DNA from: a virus
Strand: one strand, 5' to 3'
Virus record (IMG/VR): IMGVR_UViG_3300046804_005083
Location: 1 to 64,000 of that record
Length of the DNA stretch: 64,000 nucleotides
How positions within the stretch are numbered: the first letter of the stretch is position 1; each line of letters starts with the position of its first letter. A program made the translations under genes and the position numbers. Under the pieces are notes generated by a model. The model did not search any database. It saw only the letters and a list, made by a program, of their open reading frames with translations, and was not told where the DNA came from. Positions 4,686 to 20,364 of this stretch are shown piece by piece.

Positions 4686-5693
4686 ATGGATTTTCTTAAA
4701 GACATTGTAAAAGAAATTGGTGACGATTACACCAAACTCGCATCTGACATTGATGAAACAGAAACTTATGTTGACACAGGTTCGTATATTTTTAATGCAC
4801 TGGTTTCAGGTAGTATTTTTGGTGGTGTATCTGGGAATAAGATTACTGCTATTGCTGGAGAGTCTTCTACTGGAAAGACTTTCTTCAGCCTCGCCGTTGT
4901 TAAGAATTTTCTTAATAATAATCCCGATGGTTATTGTCTCTACTTTGATACTGAGGCTGCCATTACTAAATCTCTCTTAGAAAGTCGTGGAGTTGACACA
5001 TCAAGGATTGTTGTGGTTAACGTTGTCACTGTAGAAGAGTTTCGCACTAAGGCACTTAAAGCGGTTGATCTTTATATGAAGAAACCTGAGGAAGAACGTA
5101 GTCCGTGCATGTTCGTTCTTGATTCTTTGGGGATGCTCTCTACAAGTAAAGAAATTAATGATGCACTGAATGAAAAGGAAGTTAGAGATATGACTAAATC
5201 TCAACTTATTAAAGGTGCTTTCCGAATGCTAACACTTAAACTAGGTCAAGCAAATGTTCCACTTATTGTCACAAATCATACATACGATGTCATCGGAGCT
5301 TACGTACCAACGAAAGAAATGGGAGGAGGTTCTGGACTCAAATACGCAGCAAGTACGATCATTTATCTCAGCAAAAAGAAAGAAAAAGATGGAACAGAAG
5401 TGGTCGGAAATATTATCAAGGCTAAGACTGCTAAATCACGTCTGAGTAAAGAAAACAAAGATGTAGAAATTCGTTTGTTTTATGATGAACGTGGTCTTGA
5501 TCGTTATTATGGTCTTCTTGAACTTGGTGAAATTGGTGGACTATGGAAAAATGTAGCAGGACGTTATGAGATTGATGGTAAAAAACTTTATGCTAAACAG
5601 ATTCTGAAAGAACCTGAAGTATATTTCACTGAAGAAGTAATGCAACAATTGGACGAAATCGCACGTAAGGAATTTAGTTATGGAGAAAGTTGA
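4686..5693 (+). CDS. uvsX: UvsX RecA-like recombinase
   Basis: Phage RecA homologue for strand exchange and recombination-dependent replication (335 aa; T4 UvsX is about 390). The Walker A motif GESSTGKT is at residues 58-65; Walker B is the CMFVLDSLGML segment; the DNA-binding loop region includes VTNHTYDV. The stop overlaps the start of gene 41 by 14 bases, so the two are probably co-translated. Confidence 0.95.
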   Translation: MDFLKDIVKEIGDDYTKLASDIDETETYVDTGSYIFNALVSGSIFGGVSGNKITAIAGESSTGKTFFSLAVVKNFLNNNPDGYCLYFDTEAAITKSLLESRGVDTSRIVVVNVVTVEEFRTKALKAVDLYMKKPEEERSPCMFVLDSLGMLSTSKEINDALNEKEVRDMTKSQLIKGAFRMLTLKLGQANVPLIVTNHTYDVIGAYVPTKEMGGGSGLKYAASTIIYLSKKKEKDGTEVVGNIIKAKTAKSRLSKENKDVEIRLFYDERGLDRYYGLLELGEIGGLWKNVAGRYEIDGKKLYAKQILKEPEVYFTEEVMQQLDEIARKEFSYGES

Positions 5694-7011
5694 GTTTCTA
5701 ATTCTTAGAAACCTATTGCATAATGAGGAGTTTATTAGGAAAGTACTTCCATTTTTAAAATCAGAATATTTTGAAGATCAAAATCAAAAAATTGTATTTG
5801 AAGAGATTTCTTCTTTTGTTCAACAATACAACCAACTAGCAACTAAAGAAGTTCTTTTTATTGAAGTAGAAAAAAGAAAAGACATCAACGAATCTTCTTT
5901 TAAAGAAGTTTCTCATTTAATTGATTGTTTGGACAACGTTGTAGTTGAATTAGAATGGTTGACAACTACAACAGAAAAGTGGTGTCGTGACCGTGCCATT
6001 TATTTGGCATTGATGGAATCTATTCATATTGCTGATGGCAAGGATGAAAAGAAAAGTAGAGATAGTATTCCTTCAATTCTTTCTGATGCACTTGCAGTAA
6101 GTTTTGATAATCATGTTGGACATGATTATTTGCTTGATTATGAAAAAAGATATGAAGCATATCATAAAAAGGAGGATAAAATTGAATTTGATCTGGAATA
6201 CTTTAACAAAATTACCAAAGGTGGTCTCCCTAACAAAACTCTTAATATCGCTCTTGCTGGTACGGGTGTCGGCAAATCTCTATTCATGTGCCACGTTGCT
6301 AGCTCCGTCTTGTTGCAAGGACGGAACGTTTTGTACATTACGTTGGAAATGGCGGAAGAACGAATTGCTGAACGAATTGACGCAAATCTCTTGAATGTTC
6401 CTATTCAAGATATTGTAGATTTGCCAAAACAAATGTTTGAGAACAAGGTCAACAACCTTGCAAAGAAAACTCAAGGATCACTTATAATTAAGGAATATCC
6501 AACTGCTTCAGCACATGCAGGACATTTTAAAGCACTTCTTAATGAACTTGCACTTAAGAAGTCATTTAGACCTGATATTATTTTTATTGATTACCTTAAT
6601 ATTTGTGCTTCCTCTAGGTATAAGGGAAATCTTTCTGTTAATTCTTATTCGTATATTAAAGCAATTGCAGAGGAACTTAGAGGACTCGCCGTGGAGTTTA
6701 ATGTCCCGATTGTCTCCGCTACTCAGACCACTCGTTCAGGGTATTGCTTGGACTTGAAAACACAAGTTCAAACACCGCAAGGTATGAAAGAACTTTCAAA
6801 TATTCAAGTTGGAGATTTGGTGCTTTCTAATACTGGTTATAATGAAGTTCTAAATGTCTTTCCAAAATCTAAAAAGAAATCTTATAAGATTACTTTGGAT
6901 GATGGTAAAGAAATCATTTGTAGTGAAGAACATTTGTTCCCAACTCAAAATGGTGAAGTGAATATCAAAGGGGGTTTGAAAGAAGGTATGTGTCTTTATG
7001 TAAAGGAATAG
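5680..7011 (+). CDS. 41: gp41 helicase N-extein fused to N-half of split intein
   Basis: Residues 1-355 are the N-terminal part of the replicative DnaB-like helicase gp41 (Walker A AGTGVGKS at 193-200, Walker B IIFIDYLN). At Cys356 (TTRSGY followed by CLDL) an intein begins: residues 356-443 carry block A (CLDLKTQV, with VGDLVLSN) and block B (EEHLFPT), ending at a stop after 88 intein residues. The rest of the intein and the helicase lie at 8276-8698. Protein trans-splicing would join 355 + 103 residues into a 458-residue helicase, close to T4 gp41 (475). The intein half looks nearly identical to the published gp41-1 N-intein, judged from memory. Confidence 0.95.
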   Translation: MEKVEFLILRNLLHNEEFIRKVLPFLKSEYFEDQNQKIVFEEISSFVQQYNQLATKEVLFIEVEKRKDINESSFKEVSHLIDCLDNVVVELEWLTTTTEKWCRDRAIYLALMESIHIADGKDEKKSRDSIPSILSDALAVSFDNHVGHDYLLDYEKRYEAYHKKEDKIEFDLEYFNKITKGGLPNKTLNIALAGTGVGKSLFMCHVASSVLLQGRNVLYITLEMAEERIAERIDANLLNVPIQDIVDLPKQMFENKVNNLAKKTQGSLIIKEYPTASAHAGHFKALLNELALKKSFRPDIIFIDYLNICASSRYKGNLSVNSYSYIKAIAEELRGLAVEFNVPIVSATQTTRSGYCLDLKTQVQTPQGMKELSNIQVGDLVLSNTGYNEVLNVFPKSKKKSYKITLDDGKEIICSEEHLFPTQNGEVNIKGGLKEGMCLYVKE

Positions 7012-7031
7012 TATGTGTAAGTTCTACTTCT

Positions 7032-7039
7032 TATAAATA
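7032..7039 (+). promoter_or_regulatory. Late promoter motif TATAAATA
   Basis: T4-type late promoter box about 22 bases before the start of the GIY-YIG gene inserted in gene 41. Confidence 0.55.
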
Positions 7040-7060
7040 ATAGTAGTATAACTTACTGAT

Positions 7061-7726
7061 ATGAAAGTAAAGATTTATTTGATTACCAACACAGCAGTCA
7101 ATCCACATATGTATTATGTTGGATTGACTAAAAATGAATTAAATAGAAGATTACAAGAACATATTACTCTTGGAAGGCACGAAGGAAATAAACTTCTGTC
7201 TGATGCTATTATTGAATATGGTAAAAGAAACTTTACTATTGAGGTAATAGAAGAAGTTGATGAGAGTGAAGCAAGAATAAAAGAAGATTATTATATTCGC
7301 AAATATAAATCTCATTATAGAGATGGGTGTGGATATAATATGAAATATGAAACTTGCAATCATGAGAAACACTATCACGGAGCAAATCAAGAACTAATAG
7401 AAGAGAATATTAGAAATGGTAGGGTGTGGAACTATGGAATAAGTTTTTCTACACAATCAAAAGAAAAAATGAGAAAAACTAAAAAACATAGATACTCTCT
7501 TGGTCTTTATACTAAATTTAATACAAACCATACACAAGAAACAAAAGATAAAATATCAGAAAGTAAAAGAGGACAAAAACTTACAGAGGAACATAAAAAT
7601 AATATTTCTAAATCTTCTGTTGGTAGAACTTGGATTTATAATCCAGAGTTAGATGAAAGAAAGTTTGTAAAACAGGATGAGTTGGAAATGTTCTTGGAAA
7701 GTGGTTGGAAGAAAGGTAGGTTATAA
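7061..7726 (+). CDS. GIY-YIG homing endonuclease in the split gene 41
   Basis: A 221-residue freestanding homing endonuclease. The GIY-YIG domain is at residues 1-90: 'YLITNTAV' then 'MYYVGLTKNELNRRLQEH', the catalytic Arg being in NRRLQEH, with a downstream Glu. The C-terminal half has NUMOD3-like repeats of the type QSKEKMRKTKKHR, ETKDKISESKRGQKL and EEHKNNISKSS, which bind DNA. It sits between the two halves of the intein-split gp41 gene with its own late promoter, and probably drove or maintains the fracture. Confidence 0.9.
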   Translation: MKVKIYLITNTAVNPHMYYVGLTKNELNRRLQEHITLGRHEGNKLLSDAIIEYGKRNFTIEVIEEVDESEARIKEDYYIRKYKSHYRDGCGYNMKYETCNHEKHYHGANQELIEENIRNGRVWNYGISFSTQSKEKMRKTKKHRYSLGLYTKFNTNHTQETKDKISESKRGQKLTEEHKNNISKSSVGRTWIYNPELDERKFVKQDELEMFLESGWKKGRL

Positions 7727-7729
7727 ATA
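7722..7729 (+). promoter_or_regulatory. Late promoter motif TATAAATA
   Basis: Overlaps the stop codon of the GIY-YIG gene and lies about 23 bases before the virion-like gene at 7752. Confidence 0.55.
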
Positions 7730-7751
7730 AACTTATAGTGTAAAAAAAAAG

Positions 7752-8195
7752 ATGGACGCACAAAATTTTCGTGGGATTCAAGAAGCATATATGGAAGTTG
7801 TTAGTAACAATAATGAGTTGAGTGAAATGTCTTATAAAAAACTTCCTGTCGGCAAAATGATGAGAAAAGTTGAATATAGGGCAGAAAGAGAAGCAGATAC
7901 GAGAGCAGATGCAGAAACAGCAGACACAACTGCTTTTATGAGTCATAATCGGGCATTAAGAGCACACAAACGCGCAGAAAGAAATAAAGAAAGAAGCAAT
8001 AGAATGATAAATGTTGCTGATACTCATAGTAAGAAAGCAGCAAAGGCAAAATCAAAACTTAAAAAAGAACAAGTAGACCTATACGACATCATTCTTTCGC
8101 ACCTTCTTGATGAAGGATATGCTGAAACACCAGAAGCAGCAGAAGCAATTATGGTGAATATGAGTGAAGAGTGGAGAGATAGTATTATTGGTTGA
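7752..8195 (+). CDS. Virion-like protein with YAETxEAAExIMVNMSEEWR module
   Basis: A 147-residue charged, helical protein. The N-terminus (MDAQNFRGIQEAYMEVV) resembles that of the structural protein at 9860 (MDSKEIRGLCEAYSAVY), and the C-terminal module YAETPEAAEAIMVNMSEEWR is shared with it. The middle is rich in Ala, Arg and Lys and probably forms long helices. A late promoter precedes it and a strong terminator follows. I infer a capsid-associated protein. It is an unusual passenger between the two halves of gene 41. Confidence 0.7.
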   Translation: MDAQNFRGIQEAYMEVVSNNNELSEMSYKKLPVGKMMRKVEYRAEREADTRADAETADTTAFMSHNRALRAHKRAERNKERSNRMINVADTHSKKAAKAKSKLKKEQVDLYDIILSHLLDEGYAETPEAAEAIMVNMSEEWRDSIIG

Positions 8196-8216
8196 TAAAA
8201 TCATAAAATCTTTCTC

Positions 8217-8249
8217 AACCACTCACCTTGCTTTTGGTGAGTGGTTTTG
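8217..8249 (+). terminator. Strong terminator hairpin before the gp41 C-half
   Basis: Perfect 11-base stem AACCACTCACC/GGTGAGTGGTT with an eight-base loop, followed by T-rich sequence. It insulates the gp41 C-terminal gene from late transcription of the inserted genes. Confidence 0.8.
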
Positions 8250-8256
8250 TTATAAT
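8228..8256 (+). promoter_or_regulatory. Promoter for the gp41 C-half (TTGCTT-N17-TATAAT)
   Basis: A consensus TATAAT at 8251-8256 follows, at 17 bases, a weaker TTGCTT box that lies in the loop of the terminator hairpin. The gp41 C-half thus appears to have its own promoter. Confidence 0.5.
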
Positions 8257-8275
8257 GTGAATAGGTAAAAACTCT

Positions 8276-8698
8276 ATGATGCTGAAAAAAATTCTAAAAA
8301 TTGAAGAACTTGATGAAAGAGAACTTATAGATATTGAAGTGTCTGGAAATCATTTGTTCTATGCGAATGCTATTCTCACACATAATAGTAGTTCTGATGT
8401 TGAACTTACTGATACTAGTGAGTCCTTTGGTCTCCCTGCTACTGCTGATCTTATGTTTGCCCTTATTAGTACAGAAGAGTTGGAAGGGATGGGACAAATA
8501 CTTGTGAAGCAACTTAAAAATCGTTATAATGATCCAACAATTTTCAAGAGATTTGTTCTTGGAATTGACAGAGCAAAAATGCGTCTTTATGATTGCGAAC
8601 AATCTGCACAAGATAATATACTTGACTCTGGACAAGAAGGAGAGTATGATTATGAAGAAAGAAAACCTAAAAAATCATTTGAAGGATTTAAATTCTAA
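8276..8698 (+). CDS. 41: C-half of split intein fused to gp41 helicase C-extein
   Basis: Residues 1-37 are a C-intein (MMLKKILKIEELDERELIDI..., block F, ending ILTHN in block G) and residue Ser38 starts the C-extein SSSDVELTDTSESFG. Residues 38-140 are the C-terminal helicase domain of gp41, including the arginine-rich RAKMRLYD region and an acidic tail. Trans-splicing with the 5680-7011 product restores gp41. The Met-Met start and the 37-residue length match the gp41-1 C-intein as I remember it. mazG starts two bases after the stop. Confidence 0.95.
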   Translation: MMLKKILKIEELDERELIDIEVSGNHLFYANAILTHNSSSDVELTDTSESFGLPATADLMFALISTEELEGMGQILVKQLKNRYNDPTIFKRFVLGIDRAKMRLYDCEQSAQDNILDSGQEGEYDYEERKPKKSFEGFKF

Positions 8699-9859: not shown

Positions 9860-11026
9860 ATGGCGATGGATTCAAAGGAAATTAGAGGTTTGTGCGAAGC
9901 ATATTCTGCCGTTTATAATGAAGATCTTAGAGATGAATTAGAAACTTTTTCAATCGAGGAAGATCTCTCAATCATTGATGATCTAAGTGATAATGAGTTG
10001 GATTTAGTAATGGAAAATATTTTTCTCTCAGGAGAATTTGATATTGATGAGTGCTTTGAATCTTTAGATCTTGTTCTCAGTGAAGCAACAGTAACAAGTT
10101 CTGAGGATAGACCTTCTGGTTCTGCAAGAGTTACTTCAAGTGCAGAAAGACCAAGTAGAGCAAAGAGAACTTCAGAAAGACAAAAACAAGTTAGAGTTGG
10201 TAGAATTGCTCAAGCAGCTCAACGTGCTGGAGAAAGGGTAAAGTCGGGTGTTGTAGGTAAAGCAAAGGCAGCAGGTGCAAAGGTTGCTTCTGCTACTCAA
10301 AAGGTAAAGGGATTTTTGGGTAAGGTTGGTCGTGCTGCTGCGGCAGGAGCATCTGCTGCTAGAAAAGAATTCGGTGGTGAGGCAGGAAGAGAAGCAAAGG
10401 CAAGAAAAACTGGTCGTCAAATGAGACGAGCAGCAAGAAAACAAGCATCTGCTGCTAGAGCAAAAGATACTAGTGCTTTCCAAAAACCAAAAGCACCTGT
10501 TGGAACTTCAGCAAATCCCAGAATTGGTCAACCTGGAAAAGAAAGACCAGCACTTCCTGCAGCAAAGACTAAAACAGTTTCTGTAGATAGAAGAAAAGCA
10601 GCAGCTGCTAAACTTGCTTCTGCAGCTGCTGGATCTGGACCATCCGGATCAGTTCAGCAAGGACAACCTGCTGGAACTTTTAAAACCAAAAAGTCTAGAA
10701 TGCAAGCACAAAAAAGAGAGGCAAGACTTACTGCAGCAGAGAGTTTTGAACTTCTGGATATTTTAGTTCAAGATATGATTAATGATGGATATGTAAACAG
10801 TGTTCATGAAGCATACGATTTAATTGAGAATTTGGATGATACTCAAACTATCAATTTAGTTGAATCATATCTAATTGAAGAGGTAGAAACTCTAGATCTT
10901 TATGATGTAGTTCTTGAGCATCTGATTGAGAATGGATATGCTGAAACTGAAGAGGCAGCAGAAGTCATCATGGTAAACATGAGTGAAGAGTGGAGAGAAG
11001 AAATTCTACGTAAAAATAATGGATGA
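9860..11026 (+). CDS. Ala/Arg/Lys-rich virion protein with IMVNMSEEWR module
   Basis: 388 residues. Residues 1-75 are acidic and helical; 80-290 are low complexity, rich in Ala, Ser, Arg and Lys (repeated AAGAKVASATQK-type segments), like a DNA-associated internal protein; the C-terminus has two related helical modules ('LLDILVQDMINDGYVNSVHE' and 'LYDVVLEHLIENGYAETEEA'). The last module is also the C-terminus of the 7752 gene. A late promoter and terminator frame it. I infer a capsid or internal head protein. Confidence 0.7.
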   Translation: MAMDSKEIRGLCEAYSAVYNEDLRDELETFSIEEDLSIIDDLSDNELDLVMENIFLSGEFDIDECFESLDLVLSEATVTSSEDRPSGSARVTSSAERPSRAKRTSERQKQVRVGRIAQAAQRAGERVKSGVVGKAKAAGAKVASATQKVKGFLGKVGRAAAAGASAARKEFGGEAGREAKARKTGRQMRRAARKQASAARAKDTSAFQKPKAPVGTSANPRIGQPGKERPALPAAKTKTVSVDRRKAAAAKLASAAAGSGPSGSVQQGQPAGTFKTKKSRMQAQKREARLTAAESFELLDILVQDMINDGYVNSVHEAYDLIENLDDTQTINLVESYLIEEVETLDLYDVVLEHLIENGYAETEEAAEVIMVNMSEEWREEILRKNNG

Positions 11027-19674: not shown

Positions 19675-20364
19675 ATGGAAGGTCGTATTTACAAAATAAC
19701 AAATCAATCCAATGGTAAGTTCTATGTTGGTATGACCAGAAAGAAATTGAAATATAGATTTAATAATCATTGTTATGATGCATTAATTAGAAACTCAAAT
19801 TCTTATTTTCATAAAGCAATAAGAAAATATGGTAAAGAAAATTTTATCATTGAAGAAATTGAGGTGTGTGAAAAAAATTTGCCCGATAGAGAAGTATTTT
19901 GGATTTCTAAATTAAAACCTGATTATAACCAAACTATTGGTGGAGATAATGGTATTCTTGGATTTAGACATACCGAAGAAACTAAAAACTTTCTTTCCAA
20001 AAAAAGAAAGGGAAAATATACTGGAGAAAAAAATCCTTTTTATGGGCAGCATCATACACAAAAAACAAAAGATAAACTAAGTCAAATGAGAAAAGGACAA
20101 CCATCACCTTGCGGATTTGCTGGAAAATCACATAAAGAGGAAAGTAAATCTAAAACTTCTCAAACACTTAAAAATAATCCAAATGTAAAAAGAACCAAAG
20201 TATTTCAGTATGATATTGAAGGAAACTTTTTAAGGGAGTTCCAATCTATTAGTGATGCTTCTAAATTCGTAGGAACAACTCCTTCTAATATAAAATATAC
20301 CTGCGAAGGAAAATTTAATCATTGTAAAGGATATAAATGGAGTTATGAAAAACTAAATACCTAA
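19675..20364 (+). CDS. GIY-YIG homing endonuclease between nrdA and nrdB
   Basis: 229 residues. The GIY-YIG domain has RIYKITNQSNGKFYVGMTRK, a catalytic Arg in KYRFNNH, and Glu in DREVFWISKL. NUMOD3-like repeats follow (HTEETKNFLSKKRKG, HTQKTKDKLSQMRKG) and a NUMOD1-type C-terminus (VFQYDIEGNFLREFQSISDA ... CKGYKWSY). A freestanding mobile gene in a reductase operon, a favoured homing target in T4-like phages. Confidence 0.93.
   Translation: MEGRIYKITNQSNGKFYVGMTRKKLKYRFNNHCYDALIRNSNSYFHKAIRKYGKENFIIEEIEVCEKNLPDREVFWISKLKPDYNQTIGGDNGILGFRHTEETKNFLSKKRKGKYTGEKNPFYGQHHTQKTKDKLSQMRKGQPSPCGFAGKSHKEESKSKTSQTLKNNPNVKRTKVFQYDIEGNFLREFQSISDASKFVGTTPSNIKYTCEGKFNHCKGYKWSYEKLNT
20353..20360 (+). promoter_or_regulatory. 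Late promoter-like CTAAATAC
   Basis: Overlaps the end of the GIY-YIG gene, 18 bases before the ADP-ribosyltransferase-like gene; suggests late expression of that gene. Confidence 0.4.

What the first reader, a model, noticed from the sequence alone, without database searches (positions are those of the whole stretch)
5680..8698. Gene 41 helicase fractured by a gp41-1-type split intein
The helicase gene is in two separate ORFs. The first ends with an N-intein starting at Cys356 (88 residues), the second starts with a 37-residue C-intein ending in ILTHN before Ser. Together they rebuild a complete 458-residue gp41. The intein halves look nearly identical to gp41-1, the very fast split intein first reported from marine metagenomes, so this window may place that intein in an actual phage genome.
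Basis: partly seen in the sequence, partly recalled or inferred. Interest (0 to 1): 0.9.

Follow-up and report, generated by a model that had tools for sequence, protein, structure and literature searches.

The report
Phage helicase broken by mobile split intein
In a virus related to known cyanobacterial phages, the essential replication helicase is encoded as two separate pieces that a near-copy of the laboratory tool intein gp41-1 should stitch together, and the DNA around it shows that this intein, with a DNA-cutting enzyme gene lodged between its halves, has been moving between viruses.

Summary
Confirmed. Gene 41 is two ORFs: 5680-7011 (355-aa N-extein, 88-aa N-intein) and 8276-8698 (37-aa C-intein, 103-aa C-extein); the spliced product is 458 aa. 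The intein is about 95% identical to gp41-1 (PDB 6QAZ/6RIZ) with every splicing residue present. The split intein and the 'fractured gene' layout are already known. The genomic biology is the new part. The same intein occurs in 49 IMG/VR phage contigs, all split, but in no annotated phage record above 60% identity. Between the halves lie a GIY-YIG homing endonuclease gene, intact and under purifying selection, and usually a phage late gene. The cassette is mobile: the window and L003 differ at one base across 6718-8416, while the flanking helicase is only 73-82% identical. Intein presence is scattered over the helicase tree. Ser at +1 comes with the intein; nearest intein-less relatives mostly have Gly. 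The endonuclease leader resembles T4 I-TevI: a late promoter inside an inverted repeat over the start site (hairpin not proven by covariation). The C-half has a terminator and its own sigma-70-type promoter. Some related phages split this helicase into three pieces using two split inteins. Trans-splicing and cleavage were not tested.

The parts
5680..6744 (+). gene 41 helicase, N-extein (355 aa, Walker A GTGVGKS uninterrupted)
   Evidence: PHROG_19 DnaB-like replicative helicase E 2e-109
6745..7011 (+). gp41-1-type N-intein (88 aa, Cys1, His63) and stop
7017..7028 (+). 5' arm of a 12-bp inverted repeat (GTAAGTTCTACT; one mismatch in this window, perfect in most loci)
7032..7039 (+). TATAAATA, T4/cyanophage late-promoter motif, inside the loop of the inverted repeat, 21 nt before the endonuclease ATG
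   Evidence: motif in PMC2984593
7045..7056 (+). 3' arm of the inverted repeat (AGTATAACTTAC), overlapping the translation start region of the endonuclease
7050..7061 (+). AACTTACTGATA, 12-mer shared with the C-extein at 8403-8414; candidate endonuclease operator
7061..7726 (+). GIY-YIG / NUMOD3 homing endonuclease gene (221 aa)
   Evidence: TIGR01453 68 bits over cut-off 56; NUMOD3, PHROG_314 and PHROG_5123; open in 39 loci, dN/dS about 0.16
7722..7729 (+). TATAAATA late-promoter motif, 22 nt before ORF147
7752..8195 (+). ORF147, likely late cyanophage gene of unknown function (PHROG_3708) with a C-terminal motif shared with ORF 9860-11026
8217..8246 (+). intrinsic terminator (11-bp stem)
   Evidence: (z -3.9)
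8248..8256 (+). extended -10 promoter element TGTTATAAT for the C-half
   Evidence: sequence and conservation
8276..8386 (+). gp41-1-type C-intein (37 aa, ...ILTHN)
8387..8698 (+). gene 41 helicase, C-extein (103 aa, Ser at +1) and stop
8403..8414 (+). AACTTACTGATA in the C-extein, candidate part of the homing site

Best explanation
A mobile split-intein cassette interrupts the replicative helicase gene of a phage related to T4-like cyanophages. The N-half is transcribed with the replication genes. The C-half is transcribed from its own sigma-70-type promoter behind a terminator. The two proteins associate through the gp41-1 intein halves and trans-splice into the full 458-aa helicase. The GIY-YIG endonuclease between the halves cuts intein-less helicase genes of co-infecting relatives, and repair copies in the intein, endonuclease and neighbouring cargo together, with about 30 bp of extein on each side including the Ser+1 codon. 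The endonuclease is kept for late infection: its leader has a late promoter inside an inverted repeat that, in read-through early RNA, would hide its start site. Shown here: anatomy, identity to gp41-1, open and conserved endonuclease gene, recent horizontal transfer with short co-transferred flanks. Inferred: trans-splicing in vivo, cleavage site, late timing, promoter and hairpin function.
For: Intein about 95% identical to gp41-1 with all splicing residues. The IMG/VR relatives that could be read are split at the same place, 39 loci with an open full-length GIY-YIG gene (window copies included), dN/dS about 0.16. Window versus L003: one mismatch in 6718-8416 while exteins are 73-82% identical. 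Third-codon-position identity 0.82 in the intein against 0.54 in the extein, intein more alike in 99% of pairs. Intein presence on the helicase tree needs 30 changes for 34 intein-bearing leaves, shuffled mean 32. Ser+1 in 43 of 43 intein-bearing loci, against Gly in 7 and Ala in 1 of 8 intein-less isolates; nearest intein-less relative has Gly for 31 of 34. The 52-nt leader with TATAAATA is almost unchanged in about 40 loci; the same motif precedes other ORFs of the window at similar short distances. Terminator plus TGTTATAAT conserved in the ORF147-type loci. I-TevI precedent for late promoter, hairpin and operator: PMC2988022 and PMC3014915.
Against: Splicing, cleavage and timing are untested. 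Hairpin covariation does not exceed the shuffles, the window's own arm has a mismatch (z -1.5), and L025 and L034 fold differently. The sigma-70-type promoter has a weak -35 (TTGCTT) and was not called by the scan. The 12-mer operator match is suggestive only: 3 of 914 other pieces of the window do as well, and only 14 of 41 intein-bearing loci keep it in the extein. Six loci keep the split intein without any endonuclease, so mobility is not universal. The intein-less samples were cut at 120 rows each.
Confidence: 0.87

Rival explanations
1. Vertically inherited relic: the intein was split once, the endonuclease is now only a passenger, and the split persists because it cannot be undone.
For: Six loci (L005 type) have lost the endonuclease and L031 keeps only ORF147, yet the intein is still split. 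No contiguous gp41-1 at this site was found, even among 54-57% relatives.
Against: Open endonuclease gene under purifying selection; near-identical cassette in 73-82% identical helicases; scattered distribution.
Confidence: 0.08
2. The intein has been domesticated as a control switch: separate promoters for the two halves make helicase assembly depend on timing or dose, for the phage's benefit.
For: Conserved terminator and separate promoter for the C-half in the ORF147-type loci.
Against: Other loci express the C-half without that module, by stop/start overlap with the upstream gene; closely related phages do without the intein.
Confidence: 0.08
3. Broken gene or assembly artefact: the helicase is inactive and its halves do not rejoin.
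For: None beyond the break itself.
Against: Same arrangement in 49 other contigs, complete splicing residues, conserved C- and N-exteins; the only intein matches in the 117-kb record are these two halves.
Confidence: 0.02

Closest known systems
gp41-1 split intein (PDB 6QAZ, 6RIZ; Carvajal-Vallejos 2012 and Dassa 2009, both cited within PMC7090010; originals not held)
   Same: Same insertion context (TRSGY|SSSDV, the published context from memory), same split after residue 88, about 95% identical, all catalytic residues
   Different: Six substitutions; here inside a 117-kb phage record with the insert and control regions readable
Fractured genes with split inteins and free-standing endonucleases (Dassa et al. 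2009, NAR 37:2560; not held, from memory)
   Same: Conserved replication gene broken by a split intein with an endonuclease gene between
   Different: Endonuclease here is GIY-YIG with NUMOD3, not the Vsr-like family described there; whether their gp41-1 locus carried this gene could not be checked
T4 td intron and I-TevI (GIY-YIG), reviewed in PMC2988022 and PMC3014915
   Same: GIY-YIG endonuclease inside an intervening element of an early replication gene; late promoter within an inverted repeat over its start; promoter-proximal sequence resembling the target
   Different: Host element is a split intein rather than a group I intron; hairpin and operator not proven here
Synechococcus phage S-SRM01 gp41 (NC_070963)
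   Same: Helicase about 84% identical in DNA over the matched part; same gene neighbourhood
   Different: Continuous, Gly at +1, an unrelated HNH-type homing endonuclease gene just upstream
VidaL-type short-N split inteins (16 aa N-part, PMC13014065)
   Same: Walker-A intein of L013 and L043 is split after about 16-18 residues
   Different: Not in the window; family identity not tested by sequence

Membership tests
gp41-1 split intein | Sequence match across both halves | tested here: met
   6 differences in residues 2-125 against PDB 6QAZ
gp41-1 split intein | Cys1, block-B His, THN end, Ser at +1 | tested here: met
   roles of His63, Thr123, His124, Asn125 from PMC12245125
gp41-1 split intein | Fast trans-splicing | not testable with these tools
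   needs co-expression
Fractured gene with split intein | Enzyme gene in two ORFs, each ending or starting in an intein half, with an endonuclease gene between | tested here: met
Fractured gene with split intein | Vsr-like endonuclease (present in about half of the original loci, from memory; not required of all) | tested here: not met
   insert is GIY-YIG/NUMOD3
GIY-YIG homing endonuclease | Family profile above cut-off | tested here: met
   TIGR01453 68.2 bits, cut-off 56.05; NUMOD3 above cut-off. PF01541 alone did not call it
GIY-YIG homing endonuclease | YxI...YVG, Arg and Glu of the active site | tested here: met
   YLI..YYVG, NRRLQEH and EARIKED in the window; pattern largely kept across 39 loci; residue roles from established knowledge of I-TevI
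GIY-YIG homing endonuclease | Site-specific cleavage and homing | not testable with these tools
   only the population signature of transfer was seen
I-TevI-type late switch | Late-promoter motif between upstream gene and endonuclease | tested here: met
   TATAAATA at fixed place in about 40 loci
I-TevI-type late switch | Hairpin hiding the ribosome site in read-through RNA | tested here: inconclusive
   12-bp arms, z -2.95 in L010 but -1.5 in the window; covariation not above shuffles
I-TevI-type autorepression | Operator resembling the homing site | tested here: inconclusive
   shared 12-mer, about 3 in 1000 by chance against other window pieces

The most novel reading that the evidence does not exclude
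The gp41-1 cassette is an actively homing genetic element with its own two-phase expression programme (late, hairpin-gated and perhaps self-repressed endonuclease; separate early promoter for the C-half). It rewrites Gly to Ser at the junction when it invades. In some relatives it combines with a second split intein, so that one replicative helicase is assembled from three separately made proteins.
Probability: 0.5. Interest if true: 0.68.

Novelty: new member of a known kind. Interest (0 to 1): 0.5.

Why it matters
gp41-1 is among the fastest inteins in use, and here its natural setting can be read: which phages carry it, what lies between its halves, how each half is probably expressed and how it spreads. 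The Gly-to-Ser change and the sharp edges of the shared tract make homing of a split intein directly testable. The related loci show one Walker-A intein continuous, split without an insert, and split around an endonuclease gene, which bears on how split inteins arise.

Tried and rejected
Contiguous gp41-1 at this site: none among 49 loci or the 54-57% relatives; bacterial and archaeal genomes gave none. PDB search of the endonuclease: nothing useful. First stem test used wrong columns and was redone. First ungapped comparison of exteins was spoiled by an indel in L015 and redone with codon alignment. The idea that Ser+1 marks all once-inteinated genes was dropped: Ser+1 intein-less genes are common in more distant helicases. 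Dassa 2009 and Carvajal-Vallejos 2012 are not in the paper library.

Full report
OBSERVATION. ORF 5680-7011 is 443 aa: 355 aa of helicase and an 88-aa N-intein beginning at Cys356. ORF 8276-8698 is 140 aa: a 37-aa C-intein ending ILTHN, then 103 aa of helicase. Joined at GY|SSS the exteins make 458 aa, a DnaB-like replicative helicase of PHROG_19. Against the PDB, the joined intein matches gp41-1 chains 6QAZ and 6RIZ over residues 2-125, with six differences from 6QAZ, and Cys1, His63, Thr123-His124-Asn125 and Ser+1 are present. Residue 120, Ala here and Asp in gp41-1, varies naturally among relatives.

SETTING. The window is part of a 117,152-bp viral record. Its best matches are cyanophages, chiefly Synechococcus phage S-SRM01 and other Kyanoviridae. 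In 50,697 phage records no N-intein exceeds 60% identity, whereas 485 records match the queried region by DNA, mostly cyanophages matching the exteins, and the eight junctions read were all continuous. In IMG/VR 49 loci carry the N-intein at 83-100% identity. Those that could be read are split after residue 88, in gp41, at the same place. L002, a 153,677-bp contig, encodes the same proteins at 100%. Two more distant relatives at the same site, L095 and L096 (54-57%), are split too. Bacterial and archaeal genomes gave none.

THE INSERT. Between the halves lies a 221-aa GIY-YIG endonuclease gene (TIGR01453 above cut-off; NUMOD3; PHROG homing endonucleases). It is open in 39 of 39 full-length copies with median dN/dS about 0.16. 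Many loci then have an ORF147-like gene (PHROG_3708, unknown), whose last 41 residues resemble those of ORF 9860-11026 and of hypothetical proteins in cyanophages. Six loci (L005, L007, L008, L009, L047, L049) have lost the endonuclease and L031 keeps only ORF147, but the intein stays split.

MOBILITY. Window and L003 differ at one base between 6718 and 8416, while their exteins are 73-82% identical. The shared tract starts 27 bp before the intein and ends 30 bp after it, as expected of homing with short co-conversion. Across 42 loci, third-codon-position identity averages 0.82 in the intein and 0.54 in the nearby extein, and the intein is the more alike in 99% of pairs; a weak correlation between the two remains (Mantel r 0.25). 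On a helicase tree of 34 intein-bearing and 186 intein-less sequences, intein presence needs 30 changes; shuffled labels need 32. All 43 readable intein-bearing loci have Ser at +1. Of eight intein-less isolates seven have Gly and one Ala. The nearest intein-less relative has Gly for 31 of 34. Ser+1 without intein is common only in more distant helicases (at most 82.5% identical). So Ser+1 most likely arrives with the intein. Limits: the intein-less samples were cut at 120 rows, and the tree rests on 154 residues.

EXPRESSION. The 52 nt between the N-intein and the endonuclease are almost unchanged in about 40 loci. They hold TATAAATA, the T4 late-promoter motif, with NATAAATA reported for cyanophage S-PM2 (PMC2984593). 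It lies 21 nt before the endonuclease ATG, and the motif stands at similar short distances before other ORFs of the window. It sits in the loop of a 12-bp inverted repeat whose 3' arm covers the start region. T4 I-TevI has this layout, where read-through early RNA hides the start site and late RNA does not (PMC2988022, PMC3014915). The fold is strong in L010 (z -2.95) but weaker in the window (-1.5) and different in L025 and L034. Pairing is 90% of cells but covariation does not exceed shuffles. I call the hairpin likely, not shown. The leader also shares the 12-mer AACTTACTGATA with the C-extein 17-28 nt past the intein, as the I-TevI operator resembles its homing site; this is a lead only. 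Upstream of the C-half are a terminator (8217-8246) and an extended -10 element TGTTATAAT (8248-8256), conserved in the ORF147-type loci. In several other loci the C-half start lies at or overlaps the stop codon of the gene before it.

RELATED LOCI. In L013 and L043 the helicase has a second intein at Walker A, split after about 16-18 residues, so that it comes as three proteins. In L034 a second split intein lies 12 residues after gp41-1, leaving a 12-residue middle extein. The Walker-A intein is continuous in L005, split without an insert in L037, and split around a reverse-strand HNH-like gene in L013.

NOVELTY. The intein and the fractured layout are known. New, as far as the held literature shows, are the phage setting, the transfer evidence, the Ser+1 change, the I-TevI-like leader and the three-piece helicases. 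Dassa 2009 could not be read; from memory its abstract mentions control elements brought in with the endonuclease gene, so part of this may have been noted there.

Noticed in passing
L013:595-4320 and L043:1288-4894: gp41 encoded in three ORFs: a Walker-A intein split after about 16-18 residues plus gp41-1, so the helicase needs two trans-splicing events. L014, L037 and L040 look similar but are incomplete.
   Followed up: partly
L034:2287-3255: Second split intein 12 residues after gp41-1 in the same helicase, giving a middle piece with a 12-residue extein SSSDPELTDTSE.
   Followed up: partly
L005:1418-1850, L037:4069-4520, L013:1210-2340: One Walker-A intein in three states: continuous, split by stop/start overlap without insert, and split around a reverse-strand HNH-like gene.
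   Followed up: partly
L025:300-1400: uvsX of the same contig also carries a split intein (EMGGG|CLVAGTK) with an HNH-like ORF, next to the gp41-1-split helicase.
   Followed up: no
L056 (Shigella phage ESh36, ON528746.1, record marked UNVERIFIED):1882-4862: gp41 of an isolate T4-type phage split by a different intein at SDIAE|C, with a 332-aa ORF between; L101 has a continuous intein at a matching site.
   Followed up: partly
window 7752-8195 and 9860-11026: Two ORFs share a C-terminal motif (LLDEGYAETPEAAEAIMVNMSEEWRDSI) found in hypothetical proteins of several cyanophages; both follow late-promoter motifs.
   Followed up: partly
window 19675-20364: Second GIY-YIG/NUMOD3 endonuclease ORF in the window, also preceded by TATAAATA (19644).
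   Followed up: no
L051:5173-5754 (S-SRM01): HNH-type homing endonuclease gene directly upstream of an intein-less gp41.
   Followed up: no
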